This document shows, piece by piece, positions 19,517-29,186 of a DNA stretch of 64,000 bases. The notes under the pieces are model-generated. The model was not told the DNA's origin. It saw only the letters and a program-made list of their open reading frames with translations, and did no database searches. A program made the position numbers and the translations under genes. This stretch comes from Erythrobacter longus (GTDB lineage: Bacteria; Pseudomonadota; Alphaproteobacteria; Sphingomonadales; Sphingomonadaceae): assembly GCF_000715015.1 (NCBI RefSeq), contig NZ_JMIW01000001.1:434001-498000 (forward strand). The letters are read 5' to 3'. Each line of letters opens with the position of its first letter. Within the stretch, counting starts at the first letter, position 1.

Positions 19517-19554
19517 CGCTCCTTTTGCACCAAACGGATAGGAAGCTTAATTCT

Positions 19555-21003
19555 ATGACGGCCCCTGCGTCAAATTCTTTGGACAATACGCCTTCGGCAA
19601 CCAAGGCGCCTGTGGTTACCAGGTTTGCCCCATCGCCCACAGGTTTCCTGCACATTGGCGGCGCGCGCACCGCTTTGTTCAATTGGCTTTATGCCCGGCA
19701 CCATGGCGGCAAGGCGCTGTTGCGGATTGAAGACACGGACAAAAAGCGCTCCAATCAAGAGGCGATCGACGCGATTTTGGACGGGCTGGATTGGCTCGGC
19801 CTTGATTACGACGAAGAGCCCGTTTTTCAGTCTCAGCGCGCCGAACGTCATGCTGAGGTTGCTCACAAGCTGCTCGAGGCGGGCCACGCCTATAAGTGCT
19901 TTGCGACCGCCGAAGAGTTAGAGGCGATGCGCGCAGAACAACGCGCCAATAAACAGCCGATGCGTTATGATGGCCGGTGGCGCGACCGCGATCCCTCAGA
20001 GGCGCCAGAGGGTGCGCCCTACACCGTGCGTCTCAAAACGCCGGTTTCAGGCGAGGAAACCATCGACGACTGCGTTCAGGGCAGCGTTTCGGTTAAAAAT
20101 GAAGAGCTTGATGACTACATCATCCTTCGCGCCGATGGTACGCCAACCTATATGCTTGCAGTTGTTGTGGATGACCATGACATGGGCGTGACGCACGTCA
20201 TCCGGGGCGATGACCACCTCAACAATGCGTTCCGACAATTGCCGATTTACCGGGCTATGGACGAAATCGAAGGGGGATGGCCCGTTCCCGTTTACGCCCA
20301 TGTCCCGCTGATCCACGGGTCAGACGGTGCCAAATTGTCAAAACGCCACGGCGCATTGGGCGCGGAAACCTACCGCGACGAATTTGGCATCCTGCCAGAG
20401 GCTCTGTTCAATTACCTGCTCCGGCTTGGTTGGGGCCACGGTGACCGTGAAGAGATCACGCGCGATGAAGCGATTGAGCTGTTCGATCTGTCTGGCGTTG
20501 GGAAAAGCCCATCTCGCTTTGATATGAAGAAGCTTGAAAACCTTAACGGCCACTACATTCGCGAAGCAGACGATGCAAAGCTTGCCGATCTTGTTGCAAA
20601 ACGGATCGGCGAAGGCGCGGATCTGGAGCTTCTTGCAAAAGCCATGCCCGTGCTCAAAACGCGTGCGAAGAACCTCGATGAACTGGCTGAAGGGGCTGGA
20701 TTTCTGTTTGCAAAACAACCGCTCGAAATCACTGAGAAGGCGGCCAAATTCCTTGATGATGAATCAAGAGGTCTCTTGCGACGTATTTCTAGCGCATTAT
20801 CGGGCGAAAAGAACTGGACAATGGAGGCTCTCGAAGCCACTACCAAATCGCTTGCAGAGGAACTGGATCTGGGCTTCGGCAAGCTGGCGCAGCCAATGCG
20901 CGCTGCCCTTACTGGGACGACAACCTCGCCCGGAATTTTTGACGTACTGGTCCTTTTGGGACGGGAAGAATCCTTGGCTCGCATCGACGCGCAAGCTTCC
21001 TAG
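19555..21003 (+). CDS. gltX: Glutamate--tRNA ligase
   Basis: A 482-residue class I aminoacyl-tRNA synthetase that charges tRNA-Glu. The HIGH-type motif is at about 33-36 ([18 protein letters not shown]), and the KMSKS-type motif is AKLSKRHGA near residue 262. The anticodon-binding C-terminal part ends normally. I use ATG 19555, which has GGAAG 9 nt upstream; an upstream TTG is less likely. The comEC - gltX - gltA arrangement is typical of Sphingomonadales. It may also charge tRNA-Gln if the genome lacks glnS, which cannot be judged here. Confidence 0.97.
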
Positions 21004-21060
21004 GAAGTTGGGTAAGAAGCTGGGCCAACAAGGTTCTAGGAAAGATTGATTAGGAGACAC

Positions 21061-22350
21061 ATGGTGGCTGACAAGCAAGCGAAGCTCGAAATTGGAGGTG
21101 CGACACACGAATTTCCCGTGCTCGAAGGGAGCACAGGGCCCGACGTTATCGACATTCGCAAGCTGTATGGCGCAACCGGCGCTTTCACCTTTGACCCCGG
21201 TTATAAATCGACGGCAAGCTGTGAAAGCGCGCTGACGTATATCGATGGCCAGGAAGGCATTCTGCTGCACCGTGGTTACCCCATCGGACAGCTTGCCGAG
21301 CATTCCAGCTTTATGGAAGTGAGCTACCTCCTGCTCAATGGCGAGTTGCCAAACGCAGATGAGCTGAGCACTTTTGAACACACGATCACCAACCACACGA
21401 TGCTGCATGAGCAGTTGATGACCTTCTATCGCGGTTTCCGTCGTGATGCGCACCCGATGGCCATCATGTGCGGCGTGGTTGGTGCGTTGTCGGCATTCTA
21501 TCACGACAGCACCGACATCTCTGATCCAGAGCACCGCAAGATTTCGTCCCACCGCCTCATCGCAAAAATGCCAACGATTGCGGCAATGGCGTATAAATAT
21601 GCCGTGGGTCAGCCATTCCTCTACCCGGATAACTCACTGTCTTACACTGGCAACTTCCTGCGTATGACGTTTGGTGTTCCAGCAGAAGAATACGAAGTTC
21701 ACCCGGCGATTGAAAAGGCAATGGACCGGATTTTCATCCTCCATGCCGACCACGAACAGAACGCATCGACATCGACCGTTCGCCTTGCAGGGTCTTCGGG
21801 CGCAAATCCGTTTGCGTGTATCGCAGCTGGTATCGCTTGTCTTTGGGGTCCGGCCCATGGCGGTGCGAACGAAGCGGCGCTCAACATGCTGCAAGAGATC
21901 GGCACGCCTGACCGCATTCCGCATTATATTGAGCGTGCAAAGGACAAGAATGACCCGTTCCGCCTGATGGGCTTTGGTCACCGGGTTTACAAAAACTACG
22001 ATCCGCGCGCGACAGTCATGCAGCAGACACTTCGCGAAGTGTTTGAAGCGCTCAAGACGACTGATCCGGTATTCGAAACCGCTCTCAGACTTGAAGAAAT
22101 CGCGCTCAACGACGACTATTTCAAAGAGAAGAAGCTGTTCCCGAATGTCGATTTCTATTCTGGCATCATTTTGAGCTCGATCGGCTTCCCAACCACCATG
22201 TTCACCGCGCTGTTTGCACTTGCACGCACCGTTGGCTGGGTGGCGCAGTGGAACGAAATGATCTCTGATCCAGCTCAGGTTATCGGCCGTCCGCGTCAGC
22301 TCTACACCGGGCCAACGCAGCGCGATTATGTGCCGGTTGGACAGCGCTAA
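21061..22350 (+). CDS. gltA: Citrate synthase
   Basis: A 429-residue type I (hexameric, Gram-negative) citrate synthase condensing oxaloacetate and acetyl-CoA at entry to the TCA cycle. Catalytic motifs are present: [14 protein letters not shown] (first His), [13 protein letters not shown] (second His) and VDFYSGIIL (Asp). An AGGAG ribosome site sits 5 nt before the ATG at 21061. It is 57 bp downstream of gltX and ends at a strong terminator. Confidence 0.97.
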
Positions 22351-22427: not shown

Positions 22428-23864
22428 TTATTCGGCGGGCATGACGGGCAGGCTCAACTTGAACTGCGCACCGGGCATATCTGTGTTCTGTTGCTGTGGC
22501 AGAACCTCAAGGTTCCCCTCCATCGCAAGCGCCAATTTGCGAGAAATGAACAGGCCAAGCCCTGAGCCAGTGTCATTGCCACCATCGCTATCCCGGCCAA
22601 GGCGTTCAAACTTATTGAAGATTTTGCCCGCCTGCGCCTTTGTGATCCCCGGACCTTGATCGGTCACCGTGACGCTCACCATGCCAAGCGAACCCTCGTC
22701 AACATTGACCGAAACTTGGCTCTCTTCGGGTGAGTAGGCAATTGCATTGCCGATGAGGTTGATTAGCACCTGAAGCACGCGGCGAAACTCTGCCTGGGCG
22801 TAGATCGGCTCTGCCAATTTATCGACTTTCACCGAAATACCGCGCGCCTGCGCCCTCACCCCCAAAATGCCGGCGGCCCGCTGAGCAACATCGGCCAGAT
22901 CGACGCGCTCCTTTGCGGCCTTAAATCCAGGGGCTTCCACCACTTCGAGGTCGGCAAGGTCATCCAGCATCCCGGCCAAGTGCTGACCCGCTGCCGCGAT
23001 ATTGGCGGCATATTCGCTATATTCGTCACGCAACGGGCCTGCGAGCCGTGCATGGATTGTCTCTGCATTGGCCACAATGCGCGCAATGGGCTGGCGCAAA
23101 ACAGGCGTCAAAGCGCTTCCCACCAAGCGCGAGTGCTGAAGTTCGCCATTCTCGAGCGCTTCTTCCCGGTGCGCATCACCTTTGAGGGGTTCATTCGCGA
23201 TGAAAAGCAGCTCAAACCCGCGCGGTGCCGATGCAGAGGGGCCCACAGGCAGAACGCGCGCTCGCCAGCTGCGGTCAGAGCCGGGCACAGTCACCTTTGC
23301 CCCATCAAGCAAACGCCAATGGAGCGGCTGTTCATGCGCAATGCCATCAAGCTCCACATACTCGCTCCACAGCTTGCCGGGAGCGGCCTCAACCGCTTCA
23401 CACAGTGCCTCAGCATCGCTGCTGAAGGATGTGATAAATTGAAGCTTTTGCCGCGCGTCGAGCTGCGCTGTGATCTCGGCCGATGCACGATCAGCAGCGT
23501 CCAGCCAATCTACGCTGGTCCGGGTCTGTGCATCGCCTTGCGCGCCGCTTAGCCAGTTTTCGATGATGATCTCGCAGCCGCCAATGACGTCTGTGTCGTC
23601 TTCACCAGTTTCGAGAACCGGATGCACTCTTACAAAGCCGCCTACCTTGTCCTGCCCGTCAAACGCGCTGAATTCTCGGGCGATGCGAAGGCCCCGCTCG
23701 CGGCATTGGCGGACCAGTTCGCGCAGTTCAGGCACAGCCAGAGCGCCCGGCAAACGGCCACCGCAGGCCTCCTGCAATTCTGCCAGCAGCTCGTCCGCTT
23801 TGACGAGCCGGTCGTGTTCGTCAGTCAGGCCGTGCGCGGCGATAATGGACTGTTGGCGGTTCAT
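22428..23864 (-). CDS. Histidine-kinase-like protein lacking the H-box histidine
   Basis: A 478-residue soluble protein. The N-terminal half (about 50-230) looks PAS-like but is not clearly assignable. A DHp-like helix follows, then a complete HATPase domain with N-box NLIGNAIAYSPE (Asn373), G1 box DQGPG (402-406), F-box IFNKFERLG and G2 box GSGLGL (433-438). In the DHp helix the segment TPVLRQPIARI (253-263) aligns with the usual SHELRTPLTAI, so Pro254 stands where the phosphorylated His belongs. ATP binding should be intact but canonical autophosphorylation should not. It is the last gene of the minus-strand cluster, 9 bp after the DUF2336-like gene. A role as a His-less signalling ATPase, like the Tyr-variant DivL of Caulobacter, is inference. 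Confidence 0.8.
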   Translation of the reverse strand: MNRQQSIIAAHGLTDEHDRLVKADELLAELQEACGGRLPGALAVPELRELVRQCRERGLRIAREFSAFDGQDKVGGFVRVHPVLETGEDDTDVIGGCEIIIENWLSGAQGDAQTRTSVDWLDAADRASAEITAQLDARQKLQFITSFSSDAEALCEAVEAAPGKLWSEYVELDGIAHEQPLHWRLLDGAKVTVPGSDRSWRARVLPVGPSASAPRGFELLFIANEPLKGDAHREEALENGELQHSRLVGSALTPVLRQPIARIVANAETIHARLAGPLRDEYSEYAANIAAAGQHLAGMLDDLADLEVVEAPGFKAAKERVDLADVAQRAAGILGVRAQARGISVKVDKLAEPIYAQAEFRRVLQVLINLIGNAIAYSPEESQVSVNVDEGSLGMVSVTVTDQGPGITKAQAGKIFNKFERLGRDSDGGNDTGSGLGLFISRKLALAMEGNLEVLPQQQNTDMPGAQFKLSLPVMPAE

Positions 23865-23873
23865 AAGCGCGAT

Positions 23874-24818
23874 CTAAACCTCGCTCATTTCGCGCAAAGT
23901 GTCCTGTGCAACGCTCTGAGATAACGCCGCAAAACCATCGGGCAAAGGTTTGGTCCCACCCAAAACGGCCAACTGCCCTTCGATGGCATGCGCGCTGAGC
24001 CCCGCGGCTTTGAGCATGAGGGCAAGTCTTACAATTTGAGCTTCGTGACAGGCAAAGACGGCGTGTTCGCGTGGCTGGCCGGTCAATGATGCCATAGCGC
24101 TTGCGAACAAGGCAAGCCCCGCATGGCTAAGATCGAGAGCCGCAATGGCGCCCCCGTGCATCGACGAGCTTAGCCGCGCAAGAAGGCCAATGCGGCCCGC
24201 CCCTTCGTCATATGCGCGTTTGAGCTTTGCGATGGCCGCGTCAATGTGATGCTTGCCAGCCCCAAGCGGAGCCGCCTCAAACAGGTCGAGAACCCTGCTG
24301 AACACTTCAAATGGAAGCTCGCCCACGGGCATTTCCATCCGGTTCTGGCTTTGTGCAAAACGCGATTGAGCCGCCATGGTACTCATCGCAATTTCTGCAA
24401 TTTCGGGTTTATCAGAAGCGATGAGCTCCTGCATTAGAGGGCTGAGCACAGGGTCAATCGAGGCGGTTTGCTTGAGCTTTGCCGTCAGATGCCCTTCGAG
24501 CGCTACGGAATACAGGTGGTCGACCACCGTTTCATCCGATGCCAATTGCTGCGCCACCACATCCACAAGGGCTTTCAACATTTCGGAATTTTCGGGGTTT
24601 AACGGCAGTTCGCCTACAAATTGCGCGGCGATATCGTTGATCATCCCGCGCAGCCGTGCAACGATTGCGTCGCCAAAAAGGCTAGGCCCCTCGCTATCAA
24701 GCATATGCCCAATAACCGGCGCAACAGAGCGTAGCGCACGGTTGCCGCGCGCCATTTCATCCCGCAGGAATGCGTCCACCAAAGTGGACTGAGATCGGTC
24801 GATCGCCATCTTGCCCAT
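23874..24818 (-). CDS. DUF2336-like helical protein
   Basis: A 314-residue all-helical, soluble protein. The middle contains SRFAQSQNRMEMPVGELPFEVF, which resembles the conserved core of DUF2336 proteins, so I make that assignment tentatively. No catalytic motif, signal peptide or membrane helix is seen. A second in-frame Met three codons in is an alternative start. It overlaps nothing but is only 9 bp from the kinase-like gene and 41 bp from the upstream membrane-protein gene, which indicates a shared transcript. DUF2336 function is unknown. Confidence 0.6.
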   Translation of the reverse strand: MGKMAIDRSQSTLVDAFLRDEMARGNRALRSVAPVIGHMLDSEGPSLFGDAIVARLRGMINDIAAQFVGELPLNPENSEMLKALVDVVAQQLASDETVVDHLYSVALEGHLTAKLKQTASIDPVLSPLMQELIASDKPEIAEIAMSTMAAQSRFAQSQNRMEMPVGELPFEVFSRVLDLFEAAPLGAGKHHIDAAIAKLKRAYDEGAGRIGLLARLSSSMHGGAIAALDLSHAGLALFASAMASLTGQPREHAVFACHEAQIVRLALMLKAAGLSAHAIEGQLAVLGGTKPLPDGFAALSQSVAQDTLREMSEV

Positions 24819-24859
24819 TGCGTAGCACCTACAGGCTTAAGGTTAAGCCCCGGTTAGCC

Positions 24860-26077
24860 TTACATAATAGCTTTTTTATTGCGGACGCGCAGCAGCAATT
24901 GCAAAAGCGCCCCAAGAGAGAACACAAGCAAAGCGTTTTGAAGAAGGCCAAAGAAGGCTGCGCCTGCAAATATCGCCAAATGAAGAGCATTATCGCGCCA
25001 AAATGCCTGCGATGGTTTTGAGCCGGTGCTTCCAGCAAGATACGAAAGCCCTATCGCAAGCAATGGGATGGAAAGGCTCACCAGCATGGCTCCTGCCTCC
25101 CAATTGGCAATCATCAGCACCGCGCAAGAAAGCATAGTCGTCACTGGTGCAATCCAGTTTGAGAGCGCAGATTGGGCAGCGTGGAGTGATATTCCGCGGC
25201 GCAATCTTCCCGAGCTATCTGCAAGCGATGCGGCAAATGCGCCCACGCTGGCCAAGGCAATGCCTGCAGGAGCAAACCCAATACCGGCCAAGATTGCCGC
25301 AACCAAAAAGCCTGCAACTGCCGCTGCTGCTGCGATTTCGCTACCCGCGCCAAGCCACCGGTCGGCTGTTTGGCGCACGATTGCAGCAGCAATCACCGCG
25401 CCCGGCCCTGCCCAGCTTGGCTGCGACAGATTTGCTTCCATCAAGGCTTTGCCGCGAAGGTTCAGGCTCTCGGCATCGCTTGCAAGCACCCATTGGTTGT
25501 TTTCAAGCAGCGTTATTGGCACATCTTCGCGCACCACCCTTGCTTGAAGCCCGATCCGCAAGAGTAGCGAAACCGCATCGGCATCTTCTGGCATTTCCTT
25601 AAGCGCCGCGGCGCATTCCCCTGGAAGAACAGCAACGCCGCCCCAATGCTTGTCCTTGTCGATTCTTTGAAAATCAGCGGGATATGCCGCGCTTAACGGG
25701 TGATCCGAGCTGATTTCAAAGATGCAGTTTTGCAAAGCCGCGTCGGCGCCGCAATCATCGTCTAGCGCGTCCTGATCAACAATAAGGCCGTCGAGCTGGA
25801 CAAATATCGCATCATCCGCGCGCACTAGATTTGTCAGCTGAAGGTGATTGCGCAGCGCATGAAAAGAGAGCCCCTTGCCCTCGACCCTGCGCTGCTGGGC
25901 GATGATAAGTTCGCTGGCCGGCGCAGTGCACAGGCAGATGATCCGTTCACATTGCAATCGAAGCGCCAGATCGACCTGCCATTCAAGCACGCTTCGCCCT
26001 GCAAGCTTTTGCTCAGCTCGCAATGCACCGTTCGATGCACGCTCGGTCGCCGACAATAAGGCAATGCGCAAAGCCAA
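24860..26077 (-). CDS. Nucleotidyltransferase-like / multi-helix membrane protein of unknown function
   Basis: A 405-residue two-part protein. Residues 1-200 look like a sugar-nucleotide or IspD-type nucleotidyltransferase fold (QKLAGRSVLEWQVDLAL, IFVQLDGLIVD), but the GxGxR signature loop is replaced by LLSATERASNG. Residues about 225-395 hold six or more hydrophobic helices rich in Ala and Gly. The layout recalls bifunctional inositol-phosphate cytidylyltransferase/CDP-alcohol phosphotransferase enzymes, yet the DG-AR-G-D-D motif of the latter is absent. Function unknown; it may be a catalytically dead relative. It sits second in a four-gene minus-strand cluster. Confidence 0.6.
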   Translation of the reverse strand: MALRIALLSATERASNGALRAEQKLAGRSVLEWQVDLALRLQCERIICLCTAPASELIIAQQRRVEGKGLSFHALRNHLQLTNLVRADDAIFVQLDGLIVDQDALDDDCGADAALQNCIFEISSDHPLSAAYPADFQRIDKDKHWGGVAVLPGECAAALKEMPEDADAVSLLLRIGLQARVVREDVPITLLENNQWVLASDAESLNLRGKALMEANLSQPSWAGPGAVIAAAIVRQTADRWLGAGSEIAAAAAVAGFLVAAILAGIGFAPAGIALASVGAFAASLADSSGRLRRGISLHAAQSALSNWIAPVTTMLSCAVLMIANWEAGAMLVSLSIPLLAIGLSYLAGSTGSKPSQAFWRDNALHLAIFAGAAFFGLLQNALLVFSLGALLQLLLRVRNKKAIM

Positions 26078-26199
26078 GCTCCCTCAAGGATGGGCCCAAT
26101 TCCTCTGAACATGAGGCAATGCGCAGTCGCTACGCCGCTTACCCCTCTTGCATCAAGCGTAAGGGGAGAAGTCTTTCCACGATTTTGAGGCAGTTAGCG

Positions 26200-26517
26200 C
26201 TAGAAGCGTCCCGGAGCGTTGCCGCTGAAGCGGGCGAGCACAGTTTCGATTTCGCGAATTGCCGCCGGTTCGCCAGGGGCTGAACACAGCGCGTTTTCTG
26301 CCGCATCAAGCAGGTCTTGCGCATGAAAACTGGCCGCTAGCCCTTTCAAACGAAGGGCCGCAACGTTCCAATTTCCATCGCAACGTGAACGCTTTAGCAG
26401 ATCGAGGAGCTTTTCAGCGCTCTCTAAGAACGCGCCGCGCAGTTCGCTCAGCAGAGCCGAGTTATCACCCGCTGCCGCCGCGAGAGTCGCATCAAGAGCA
26501 CCACTTTCATAAGCCAT
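26200..26517 (-). CDS. Hpt-like protein lacking the phospho-accepting histidine
   Basis: A 105-residue helical protein with the Hpt core pattern AALRLKGLAASFHAQDLLDAAENAL. In canonical Hpt domains this region reads A-H-x-L-K-G; here Leu55 occupies the His position (codon CTT, one base from CAT), so phosphotransfer through this site is not expected. I start at ATG 26517 (MAYESGALD) rather than an upstream GTG. It is the first gene of the minus-strand cluster, 122 bp before the nucleotidyltransferase-like gene, and divergent from the coiled-coil gene with about 70 bp between starts. Confidence 0.7.
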   Translation of the reverse strand: MAYESGALDATLAAAAGDNSALLSELRGAFLESAEKLLDLLKRSRCDGNWNVAALRLKGLAASFHAQDLLDAAENALCSAPGEPAAIREIETVLARFSGNAPGRF

Positions 26518-26588
26518 AGTTCGCACGTCTAAACGGATTCGGGTTAATGTGGGGTTTATCCTTGTGCCCGCTGTGTTATTCTGTGGCT

Positions 26589-29186
26589 ATGGCAAGTGGA
26601 AAGCACATTCGCGCGGTCGGCCAAAACGCTCAGACCAAGGCGCAATCTGATAGTGGTTCGGCGGCTGTTGATGCCGATGCGGGCGATGGTGTCGATTTTG
26701 CTGATGCAATCGAAGCTGATGCAATCGCAGCTGGCGATGAGCTTGATCTGGCGGATTATGACCTGGACGAAAGCGTTGAAGCGCAAGAGGCTTCACCACG
26801 CGCTTCGTGGTTTGCACCAGCCTTGGCGATTTTGGCGGCGCTTGGATGGTCCGGCTTTTATGGCTGGGCGCTGCAAGATCAGCTTTTAAGCGCAGCCACC
26901 GCCCCAAGCGAATGGACACGCCTGTTCGTTGACTGGTCGGTGCCAGTCTTGTTGATTGGTGTCGCATGGCTTTTGGCGATGCGCAATTCGCAAGCGGAGG
27001 CAAAAAGGTTTGCACAAAGCGCGGCGCTTTTGTCGCAGGAAAGCCGGGAATTGGAGAGCCGCCTCACAATTGTGAACCGCGAGCTTAGCCTTGCGCGTGA
27101 GTTTCTGGGTGCACAATCGCGCGAACTTGAAAGCCTTGGCCGGATCGCGAGTGAGCGTATTTCGGCTCATGCTGATACTTTGCAGGGCCTTATCAAAACC
27201 AATGGCAAACAAGTCGAGGCGATCGGAAGCGCCAGTGAAAGCGCGCTCGCCAATATGACCCGGCTGCGTGATGATTTGCCAGTGGTCGCCAACTCTGCGC
27301 GCGATGTATCGAACCAGGTTGGCGCTGCGGGGCGCACAGCGCATGAGAATCTCGACAAGCTGGTGAGCGGTTTTGAGCGGCTCAACGAATTTGGCAGAGC
27401 AAGCGAGACGCAGGTCAAATCCCTCGATAGCCGGGTTAGCGAGACGCTGAGCCGTTTTCAGGAACAGATCGAAGCGATCGAAGAGCGCGCGGGTGCAAGG
27501 CTTGATGAGATCAAGGCAAGCGCAAGCGAATATCGCGGCGAAGTTGAAGACGCTGAACGTGCAGCATTGGAAGCGCTCCAGGACCGTGTGGCCACACTAA
27601 AGTCCAGCACAGACGAAATGGGCACGGCGCTGCGCCAATCGGAAGAGCAGGCCATGACGCAGCTGGAGGCATCCAAGCAGCGCTTCTCTGATGAAGTGGT
27701 CAAGGCGATCAATTGGCTCGACGAAGTGGACGCCAAGGCAATCGGTCTTGCGAAGAAACGGGTCGAGGAACTCAATTCCAAGGTCGCCCTGTTTGTGGAA
27801 CAATTGGATACCCGCGACCGTCAGTTCAACGAACAGGTGGTCCGCGTTCAAGAGGCGTTTTCGACCAATGAGGCGCAGGCGAGCGAAGTTCTGGCTCAAC
27901 GCTTGGCCGATCTTGATGATGCTTTGGCACAGCGGCGCCAGGCGCAAAGCGCACAAACAGAGGAGCTTGTCTCTCATTCGGGCGAGCTTAACGAGAAAGT
28001 TGAACAGCTTACCGCTCTAATCGCAGCGGCCAAGGACGAGTCTGCGTCTGCTGAAACGATGCTGTCTTCGGGCCTCAATTCGCTCGACGAACAACTTGAA
28101 GATAAGCGCGCAAAACTGCGTGAGACACAGGCCGAGATCGATAAGTTGACCGAGGCCGGGGTGCGCCTGCTTGAGATTATTCAATCCAGCGCAACCTTCT
28201 CCCGCGAAGATTTGCCAGAAGCGATGAAGAGCACGCTTGGCACTCTCACAAACGTTGAAGAACGAGCGCATAAGGTCTCCACCCTCATGCTCGCAGCCAA
28301 TGAGAAGGCAGATGCGCTGACCAACTATTTGATCGAAGCGCGTGGCAAGGTCGATGAGAGCGACGCATCGATAGAGGCGCTGCATTCCAAAACGGCCGAA
28401 AAATCAGAAGAGGCCCTTGCGCGCATTCAAGGGCTGCAAAGTGGGCTCGCGCGGCTTGCCGAGGAGAGCGAAAACCTTGCTGGAGGCACGCAGGAGCGAC
28501 TTCGCGAAGAGCTCGCCAAACTGGATGCTGCGACAAAAGACGTGTTCGAAACGCTTGAAACAGGCGCGCGTGAGAAAGTTGGCGCCCTTGCCGAAACGCT
28601 TTCGAAGCGTGCTGTGGAAGAGCTTGAACGGTCCTTGCGCAACAATTCAGCCGAAGCCGCAGGCAAGCTGGAACAAGCCGCCGCGCATGCTTCTGGTGTC
28701 AGCCGGGAGGCAACCGCCCAATTGCGCGATCAATTGAGCAAGGTGAATGAGCTTACCAAAAACCTTGAACAGCGCATTGCCCGCGCGCGCGAGCTCGCCG
28801 AAGAGCAGGTCAACAATGACTTTGCCCGCCGTATGGCATTGATCACAGATAGCCTGAATTCATCGGCTATCGATCTGACATCGGCATTGTCGCAGGAAGT
28901 TTCTGACACGTCCTGGGATGCTTATCTCAAAGGGGATCGGGGCATTTTCACAAGGCGCGCCGTGCGCCTGATCGATAATAGCGAGGCACGCGAGATTGCT
29001 GAGCTTTATCAGAATGATGCCGATTTCAAGGCCAATGTAAGCCGCTACATCCACGACTTTGAGGCTATGCTGCGCTCCGTGTTGTCCACCCGCGATGGCA
29101 AGGCCTTGGGCGTGACGGTGCTGGGCTCTGATGTCGGCAAACTCTACGTCGTGCTGGCACAGTCGATTGAGCGGCTCAGACAATAA
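26589..29186 (+). CDS. Large membrane-anchored coiled-coil protein of unknown function
   Basis: An 865-residue protein. An acidic Asp/Ala-rich N-terminus (1-70) is followed by two membrane helices (about 74-95 and 113-131) and then about 640 residues of Ala/Glu/Leu-rich heptad-like helix (135-770) that resembles MCP or SMC-type coiled coils. A compact C-terminal domain (about 775-865) contains DTSWDAYLKGDRGIFTRRAV and LGSDVGKLYVVLAQS. No HAMP, ATPase or methylation-signature motif was identified. Both termini should be cytoplasmic. It could be a scaffold or receptor at the membrane. It shares a divergent promoter region with the Hpt-like gene. ATG 26589 is chosen over an upstream in-frame start for lack of a ribosome site further up. 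Confidence 0.75.
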   Translation: MASGKHIRAVGQNAQTKAQSDSGSAAVDADAGDGVDFADAIEADAIAAGDELDLADYDLDESVEAQEASPRASWFAPALAILAALGWSGFYGWALQDQLLSAATAPSEWTRLFVDWSVPVLLIGVAWLLAMRNSQAEAKRFAQSAALLSQESRELESRLTIVNRELSLAREFLGAQSRELESLGRIASERISAHADTLQGLIKTNGKQVEAIGSASESALANMTRLRDDLPVVANSARDVSNQVGAAGRTAHENLDKLVSGFERLNEFGRASETQVKSLDSRVSETLSRFQEQIEAIEERAGARLDEIKASASEYRGEVEDAERAALEALQDRVATLKSSTDEMGTALRQSEEQAMTQLEASKQRFSDEVVKAINWLDEVDAKAIGLAKKRVEELNSKVALFVEQLDTRDRQFNEQVVRVQEAFSTNEAQASEVLAQRLADLDDALAQRRQAQSAQTEELVSHSGELNEKVEQLTALIAAAKDESASAETMLSSGLNSLDEQLEDKRAKLRETQAEIDKLTEAGVRLLEIIQSSATFSREDLPEAMKSTLGTLTNVEERAHKVSTLMLAANEKADALTNYLIEARGKVDESDASIEALHSKTAEKSEEALARIQGLQSGLARLAEESENLAGGTQERLREELAKLDAATKDVFETLETGAREKVGALAETLSKRAVEELERSLRNNSAEAAGKLEQAAAHASGVSREATAQLRDQLSKVNELTKNLEQRIARARELAEEQVNNDFARRMALITDSLNSSAIDLTSALSQEVSDTSWDAYLKGDRGIFTRRAVRLIDNSEAREIAELYQNDADFKANVSRYIHDFEAMLRSVLSTRDGKALGVTVLGSDVGKLYVVLAQSIERLRQ

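What the first reader, a model, noticed from the sequence alone, without database searches (positions are those of the whole stretch)
22428..29186. Five-gene cluster resembling a His-less phosphorelay with a membrane coiled-coil partner
An Hpt-like gene, a nucleotidyltransferase-like membrane protein, a DUF2336-like protein and a histidine-kinase-like ATPase lie head to tail on the minus strand, with small gaps between most of them, and face a large coiled-coil membrane protein across about 70 bp. Both phosphotransfer-type members lack the phospho-accepting His while keeping the surrounding fold. Joint loss in two linked components suggests a coordinated module with a non-phosphotransfer role, perhaps scaffolding or ATP-driven control of polarity or cell cycle. 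I know of no described system with this set, but cannot search.
Basis: partly seen in the sequence, partly recalled or inferred. Interest (0 to 1): 0.72.

Follow-up and report, generated by a model that had tools for sequence, protein, structure and literature searches.

The report
Phosphate-dead relay beside polarity scaffold
Throughout one bacterial family, a sensor-kinase-like protein and a phosphate-shuttle-like protein have both lost the amino acid that carries phosphate yet stay conserved, often beside a large coiled-coil protein, so they would likely serve as docking and sensing parts on a predicted cell-polarity scaffold instead of passing phosphate.

Summary
Confirmed and extended. 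The kinase-like (P254) and Hpt-like (L58) proteins lack the phospho-accepting His, family-wide: in Sphingomonadaceae (broad sense) His is present in 0 of 65 kinase rows (N, D and four Gly of the ATP site kept in 65 of 65; a fifth Gly in 63) and in 0 of 83 Hpt rows. In outgroup loci (Kordiimonas and others) the same Hpt gene, divergent from the same coiled-coil gene, has His in 26 of 26 rows. The nearest kinases there keep His too (7 of 7). The receiver gene found beside that Hpt has no match at E <= 1e-8 in 8 of 8 Sphingomonadaceae genomes tried. The cluster joins two older pairs: Hpt with coiled coil, and kinase with DUF2336. In 14 of 14 genomes tried whose coiled-coil locus lacks the kinase, it lies elsewhere, His-less, next to a DUF2336-type gene. 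The 'nucleotidyltransferase' has an IPCT-DIPPS-like predicted fold with neither catalytic signature in 41 of 41. The coiled-coil protein belongs to a wide alphaproteobacterial family resembling TipN and GPR in layout; identity unverified. Best reading: a DivL-like, phosphotransfer-free docking and sensing hub on a polar scaffold. Function is untested.

The parts
22428..23864 (-). pseudo-histidine kinase (478 aa): N-terminal region (PAS-like in a relative), HisKA and HATPase_c
   Evidence: Pfam HATPase_c 6.3e-21, HisKA 6.9e-5 below cut-off; PAS_9 3.1e-4, below cut-off, in the S. colocasiae relative; a simple hydropathy scan finds no membrane helix
23103..23105 (-). codon of Pro254, the column of the phospho-accepting His
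   Evidence: alignment to solved kinases, codon checked; His in 0 of 65 rows
22443..22784 (-). HATPase_c domain with N, G1 and G2 residues kept
   Evidence: N, D and four Gly 65 of 65; second G1 Gly 63 of 65; F-box Phe 60 of 65
23874..24818 (-). DUF2336-like protein (314 aa)
   Evidence: PF10098 E 0.0027, below cut-off; 2.8e-25 in the gene at the same place in S. colocasiae; a DUF2336-type gene lies beside the kinase in 14 of 14 displaced copies
24860..26077 (-). membrane protein with predicted IPCT-DIPPS-like fold (nucleotidyltransferase plus CDP-alcohol phosphotransferase); both catalytic signatures absent
26200..26517 (-). pseudo-Hpt protein (105 aa from the likely ATG)
   Evidence: profile-profile match to the His-bearing Hpt set, prob 97.4, E 1.2e-11
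26353..26355 (-). codon of Leu58 (GTG numbering), the column of the phospho-accepting His
   Evidence: His in 0 of 83 Sphingomonadaceae rows and in 26 of 26 outgroup rows; codon checked
26589..29186 (+). membrane coiled-coil, scaffold-like protein (865 aa from the likely ATG; 879 from 26547)
   Evidence: matches in 58 of 61 genomes, own included
26808..26981 (+). two hydrophobic stretches, residues 88-109 and 130-145 (numbering from 26547), read as membrane helices
   Evidence: read from the sequence; the hydropathy scan itself calls only one segment here, near the second; it calls two in 29 of 40 class homologues
28707..29183 (+). conserved C-terminal helical region of the coiled-coil family
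   Evidence: matches in 108 of 289 class genomes; AF2 pLDDT 82.5; no PDB match with E <= 0.001

Best explanation
This is a conserved gene module in which a histidine-kinase-like protein and an Hpt-like protein have both lost the phosphate-accepting histidine while the kinase keeps its ATP-site residues, and it is predicted to work as a DivL-like docking and sensing hub on a likely TipN/GPR-like membrane coiled-coil scaffold, without passing phosphate. Shown: both losses are family-wide in the rows examined; the Hpt descends from a true Hpt that lies divergent from the same coiled-coil gene outside the family; the nearest kinases there have His; the neighbouring receiver is not found in the family's eight genomes tried; kinase and Hpt are under purifying selection. 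Inferred: the coiled-coil protein sits at a pole or growth site and anchors the pseudo-Hpt; the pseudo-Hpt would keep its old docking face to hold a receiver or a kinase dimerisation domain; the pseudo-kinase would bind ATP and a receiver and change shape; DUF2336 and the NTase-like membrane protein would be adaptors. The output (CckA-ChpT-CtrA axis or envelope growth) is a guess.
For: Kinase: His 0 of 65 (P33, R23, G4, K3, L1, A1); N, D and four Gly of the ATP site 65 of 65. Hpt: His 0 of 83 Sphingomonadaceae rows (window's genus 31: M28, L3, the window counted twice; other genera 52) against 26 of 26 outgroup rows (28, 50 and 22 distinct); all 26 outgroup Hpts are divergent from the coiled-coil ORF, 60-741 bp away. 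The two Hpt sets match as profiles, prob 97.4, E 1.2e-11. Tree: 12 cluster kinases on one side of a branch (100/100), grouped with 6 His-bearing outgroup kinases (95/96). Outgroup kinases lie beside a DUF2336-type gene in 6 of 7 loci. Outgroup receiver: no match at E <= 1e-8 in 8 of 8 Sphingomonadaceae genomes, matches in 2 of 2 others, one the source of the query. Displaced kinases kept and His-less in 14 of 14. Low dN/dS. The same genome has a Tyr-type DivL candidate, a CckA-like kinase (names recalled) and ChpT (PF10090). Precedent: DivL, a pseudokinase repurposed as a receiver sensor (PMC4211667, abstract and passages). Sphingomonadales show degeneration or loss of DivJ-PleC-DivK (PMC2877005, passages).
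Against: No localisation, binding or ATP assay exists. TipN or GPR identity is not established: Caulobacteraceae-like rows match the C-terminal model only at E 5.6e-4 and 9.6e-4 and no name was recovered. In the window protein the hydropathy scan calls one membrane segment, not two. The pseudo-kinase's partner is unknown and its nearest group is not the DivJ/PleC-type reference set. Only 7 of 16 outgroup genomes gave a kinase at E <= 1e-30. Only 42 of 80 loci hold all four minus-strand genes, and 5 of 80 have the kinase but no detectable Hpt by the coiled coil, so Hpt and kinase need not act together. DivL binds nucleotide poorly (PMC4211667, passages), so the ATP step has no direct precedent there. 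The same survey reports divK- or pleC-like genes in several Sphingomonadales, so that branch is not plainly gone.
Confidence: 0.45

Rival explanations
1. Decoy or titration: the pseudo-Hpt and pseudo-kinase bind receivers of live relays (for instance those fed by CckA-ChpT) and hold back phosphate flow, much as AHP6 inhibits cytokinin signalling in Arabidopsis; the scaffold link is secondary.
For: The segment around the lost His (RLKGLAASF) is kept in most of the 25 aligned Hpt rows (mean column identity 58%); a CckA-like kinase and ChpT exist in the genome; AHP6 known here only from a title and abstract start in a listing (PMC3572949), its missing His being recalled.
Against: The Hpt stays in the coiled-coil locus where kinase, DUF2336 and NTase are not found (22 of 80 loci), which points to the scaffold; no receiver partner is known.
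Confidence: 0.25
2. Cryptic catalysis: the kinase uses ATP for another reaction or phosphorylates another residue or protein, with the Hpt-like protein as regulatory subunit.
For: N, D and four Gly of the ATP site kept in 65 of 65 rows.
Against: The former His column varies (P, R, G, K, L, A), so there is no single replacement acceptor; nothing found suggests a substrate.
Confidence: 0.12
3. Unrelated neighbours: two ancient gene pairs that happen to sit together; each works alone and the cluster has no joint meaning.
For: They are separable: 22 of 80 loci have the Hpt without the other three, and in 14 of 14 genomes tried the kinase lies elsewhere.
Against: 42 of 80 loci, from several genera, keep all four, and many lie in the same place between gltA and rnj; both pairs lost His in the same family.
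Confidence: 0.15

Closest known systems
DivL (Caulobacter pseudo-histidine kinase)
   Same: HisKA plus HATPase layout with PAS-like sensor part, phospho-accepting His replaced; DivL facts from PMC4211667 (abstract and passages)
   Different: DivL has Tyr, and a separate Tyr-type candidate (NMSYEFRTP) exists in this genome; the cluster kinase has P, R, G, K, L or A, keeps its ATP-site residues and groups with other, His-bearing kinases
TipN of Caulobacter and GPR of Agrobacterium (polar coiled-coil proteins)
   Same: membrane-anchored N terminus and a long helical cytoplasmic part; GPR layout from PMC8262873 (passages); TipN and GPR called analogous in PMC13170164 (passage)
   Different: no named sequence of either was compared; the conserved C-terminal region is not mentioned in the passages I saw
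Hpt phosphotransfer domain (PF01627), and plant AHP6
   Same: profile homology to true Hpts; an Hpt relative without His, as recalled for AHP6 (listing only)
   Different: bacterial, divergent from a coiled-coil gene; the replacement is mostly hydrophobic
IPCT-DIPPS bifunctional membrane enzyme of Archaeoglobus (4mnd)
   Different: neither the nucleotidyltransferase loop nor the CDP-alcohol phosphotransferase signature in 41 of 41 members (signatures recalled)

Membership tests
Active histidine kinase | phospho-accepting His in the HisKA H-box | tested here: not met
   Pro254 here; His in 0 of 65 rows
Active histidine kinase | ATP-binding N, G1 and G2 residues of HATPase_c | tested here: met
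   N, G1 Asp, first G1 Gly and three G2 Gly 65 of 65; second G1 Gly 63 of 65, present in the window
Hpt phosphotransfer protein | Hpt profile homology | tested here: met
   hhalign prob 97.4, E 1.2e-11 to the His-bearing set; Pfam alone below cut-off (E 0.071)
Hpt phosphotransfer protein | phospho-accepting His | tested here: not met
   His in 0 of 83 rows of the family
DivL | Tyr at the His position | tested here: not met
   Pro in 21 of 21 rows of the window's genus; no Tyr among 65 rows
DivL | binds phosphorylated DivK-type receiver | not testable with these tools
   needs binding assays
TipN/GPR-type polar scaffold | two N-terminal membrane helices plus long coiled coil | tested here: inconclusive
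   two hydrophobic stretches by eye, one by the hydropathy scan in the window protein; two by scan in 29 of 40 class homologues; coiled coil not predicted by a dedicated program, only suggested by coiled-coil-type matches
TipN/GPR-type polar scaffold | sequence orthology to named TipN or GPR | tested here: inconclusive
   Caulobacteraceae-like proteins of 860 and 833 aa match the C-terminal model at E 9.6e-4 and 5.6e-4; no NCBIfam name
TipN/GPR-type polar scaffold | polar or growth-zone localisation | not testable with these tools
   needs microscopy
DUF2336 (PF10098) | Pfam gathering score 34.6 bits | tested here: not met
   17.6 bits here; 89.7 bits in the S. colocasiae gene at the same place, so a diverged relative is likely
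IPCT-DIPPS / CDP-alcohol phosphotransferase | catalytic signatures (GxGxR-type loop; DxxDGxxAR...) | tested here: not met
   0 of 41 (one loop-like hit in an N-terminal extension of L113 judged chance)

The most novel reading that the evidence does not exclude
A whole kinase-to-Hpt relay has been converted, once, at the root of Sphingomonadaceae into a phosphate-free hub: an ATP-gated pseudo-kinase and a pseudo-Hpt docked on an alphaproteobacterial polar scaffold family, with the old receiver lost and a dead phospholipid-synthase-like membrane protein and DUF2336 as adaptors, replacing the degraded DivJ-PleC-DivK polarity branch.
Probability: 0.3. Interest if true: 0.82.

Novelty: new variant of a known kind. 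Interest (0 to 1): 0.62.

Why it matters
Single pseudokinases such as DivL are known, but here two successive steps of a relay, kinase and Hpt, are both phosphate-dead and conserved across a family, with His-bearing relatives outside the family as a natural before-and-after comparison. It makes testable how signalling folds become scaffolds, and offers a candidate polarity hub for Sphingomonadales, where the DivJ-PleC-DivK branch is reported degenerate or lost (PMC2877005, passages). It also draws attention to an alphaproteobacterial coiled-coil family found in 108 of 289 class genomes whose C-terminal region I could not assign to a known fold.

Tried and rejected
Cluster kinase is the genome's DivL: rejected, a Tyr-type DivL candidate exists elsewhere in the genome. 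Cluster kinase is a DivJ/PleC orthologue: not supported, it groups with other outgroup kinases, though many members share a YxxYAxxIxxxxxHL stretch. Chance decay: rejected by family-wide conservation and low dN/dS. Long homologue L183 (2115 aa) as GPR itself: rejected, it lacks the proline-rich stretch at 1890-2000 described for GPR. C-terminal region of the coiled coil in PDB: no Foldseek match with E <= 0.001; this does not show a new fold. NCBIfam name for Caulobacteraceae-like homologues: none. One protein search was wasted on a stretch I had not checked to be coding. DUF2336 in print: 0 papers in the held library. A combined pseudokinase/Hpt/Sphingomonas search gave one paper, on a stress-response receiver (listing only).

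Limits of the counts: Hpt rows came from 30 of 30 same-genus loci plus the window itself (so the window is counted twice), 52 of 60 other Sphingomonadaceae loci and 26 of 40 outgroup loci; loci without a row are not counted. Several loci are one genome met twice; distinct Hpt sequences are. Kinase rows: 51 at E <= 1e-40 to the window kinase plus 14 displaced ones; all 65 are distinct. The displaced-kinase test took 14 loci of my choice among those lacking the kinase. Outgroup kinases in the tree are best hits to the window kinase; L224, L229, L231, L232 and L269 dropped out because my pattern did not find their transmitter part; several own-genome rows are long branches. The DUF2336 profile was seeded by position next to the kinase, so it is not independent; one search counts presence in the locus, many flanks are short, and 20 of its 80 loci are same-genus genomes. 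The absence of a DivJ match rests on four scored candidates per genome. dS of the window's DUF2336 and NTase pairs is near saturation, so their constraint is not well measured. Family membership of named loci is taken from their record titles; 'Sphingomonadaceae' here includes Erythrobacter-type genera.
Full report
What is there. On the minus strand, from the divergent start region outwards: Hpt-like (26200-26526, likely ATG 26517), NTase-like membrane protein (24860-26077), DUF2336-like (23874-24818) and kinase-like (22428-23864); on the plus strand the coiled coil (26547-29186, likely ATG 26589). The kinase run converges on gltX-gltA; the coiled coil is followed on the other strand by DUF1467 (PF07330) and an RNase J-type gene (gltX, gltA, rnj and coaX are names I gave from recall).

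His is gone, family-wide. In the kinase, Pro254 stands where solved kinases have the phospho-accepting His. In 51 aligned rows the column is P33, R14, K2, L1, A1, with no His. Adding 14 unlinked orthologues gives 0 of 65 with His (P33, R23, G4, K3, L1, A1), with the ATP-site N, D and four Gly in 65 of 65, a further G1 Gly in 63 and the F-box Phe in 60. In the Hpt-like protein, His is absent from 31 of 31 rows of the window's genus (window counted twice) and 52 of 52 rows of other Sphingomonadaceae, but present in 26 of 26 outgroup rows (distinct sequences 28, 50 and 22). The His-less and His-bearing sets match as profiles (prob 97.4, E 1.2e-11, 39% identity over 75 columns).

Ancestry. Outside the family (other families of the order, unnamed, and named Kordiimonas, Iodidimonas, Eilatimonas and MAGs) all 26 Hpt rows are divergent from the coiled-coil ORF, 60-741 bp away. 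Among the first 20 outgroup loci a receiver gene lies nearby on the same side in 12, and a DUF2336-type gene on the other side in 12 (the latter named by eye). In 7 of 40 loci from more distant families a His-bearing Hpt also lies divergent upstream, 123-1199 bp away. The receiver has no match at E <= 1e-8 in 8 of 8 Sphingomonadaceae genomes and matches in both other genomes, one of which supplied the query. At E <= 1e-30 the window kinase finds relatives in 7 of 16 outgroup genomes; all seven carry SHELRTPLNAI, that is, His. In the tree the 12 cluster kinases stand on one side of a branch (100/100), grouped with six of these (95/96), on a long stem. These outgroup kinases lie beside a DUF2336-type gene in 6 of 7 loci. 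So kinase-DUF2336 and Hpt-coiled coil look like two old pairs.

Linkage now. In the window's genus 30 of 30 loci (the window's own among them) have RNJ, DUF1467, coiled coil and Hpt in the same order, with the NTase-like gene seen in 26. Over 80 Sphingomonadaceae loci, 42 hold kinase, DUF2336, NTase and Hpt; 22 only Hpt; 5 kinase, DUF2336 and NTase without Hpt; 4 NTase and Hpt; 3 kinase, DUF2336 and Hpt; 1 DUF2336, NTase and Hpt; 3 none. In 14 of 14 genomes tried whose locus lacks the kinase, it is elsewhere (E <= 2.4e-114), beside a DUF2336-type gene in 14 and an NTase fragment in 11, and His-less in 14.

The coiled coil. It has matches in 58 of 61 genomes, and its C-terminal region in 108 of 289 genomes of the class. 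A simple hydropathy scan calls two N-terminal membrane segments in 29 of 40 class homologues, one in 9 and none in 2; in the window protein it calls one, while two hydrophobic stretches are visible. Two N-terminal membrane helices and a long helical part are described for GPR (PMC8262873, passages), and TipN is called its analogue (PMC13170164, passage). Caulobacteraceae-like genomes, placed so only by near full-length DivJ matches, have proteins of 860 and 833 aa that match the C-terminal model weakly (E 9.6e-4 and 5.6e-4). I could not confirm that these are TipN. Public names of close homologues say 'ATPase', for which the window protein shows no domain in Pfam.

Selection. dN/dS for the closest pairs: Hpt 0.043/1.106 and 0.090/0.726; kinase 0.096/1.014 and 0.146/1.083. 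For DUF2336 and NTase the measured pairs have dS near saturation (dN 0.37-0.43 and 0.60-0.61).

How it would work. DivL is the precedent: a kinase fold without His that senses a phosphorylated receiver and works without kinase activity (PMC4211667, abstract and passages). By analogy the pseudo-kinase and pseudo-Hpt keep docking faces and lose transfer; the coiled coil would place them at a pole. The genome separately holds a Tyr-type DivL candidate and a CckA-like kinase and ChpT, and no DivJ-model match at E <= 1e-60 in 4 of 4 genomes of its family, with four candidates scored in each. A 2010 survey reports degeneration or loss of DivJ-PleC-DivK in Sphingomonadales, while divK- or pleC-like genes occur in several of them (PMC2877005, passages). 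Whether this hub replaces that branch is a hypothesis. I saw no description of the set in the held library (listings).

Noticed in passing
window 19525-22350: The cluster lies convergent to gltX-gltA (citrate synthase) in many Sphingomonadaceae loci. In Caulobacter citrate synthase CitA acts in cell-cycle control (PMC7083601, abstract start and one passage). The neighbourhood may be chance.
   Followed up: no
L123 3880-5520 (Sphingopyxis; a similar ORF in L130 4011-5645): About 2 kb from the Hpt-coiled-coil pair, a different protein with an intact His motif (IHELRSP) and HisKA E 1.2e-8 but no Pfam HATPase match in L123: the opposite kind of loss.
   Followed up: partly
window 28707-29183 and 108 of 289 class genomes: An unnamed conserved C-terminal region of alphaproteobacterial coiled-coil proteins; helical model (pLDDT 82.5) without a PDB match at E <= 0.001.
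   Followed up: partly
L031-L050 (outgroup families): A further small protein with an Hpt-like HDMKGQGGTFGY stretch sits next to the receiver gene upstream of the coiled coil in 11 of 20 loci.
   Followed up: no
L099, L102, L125, L126, L127: Kinase, DUF2336 and NTase present but no Hpt detectable beside the coiled-coil gene.
   Followed up: partly
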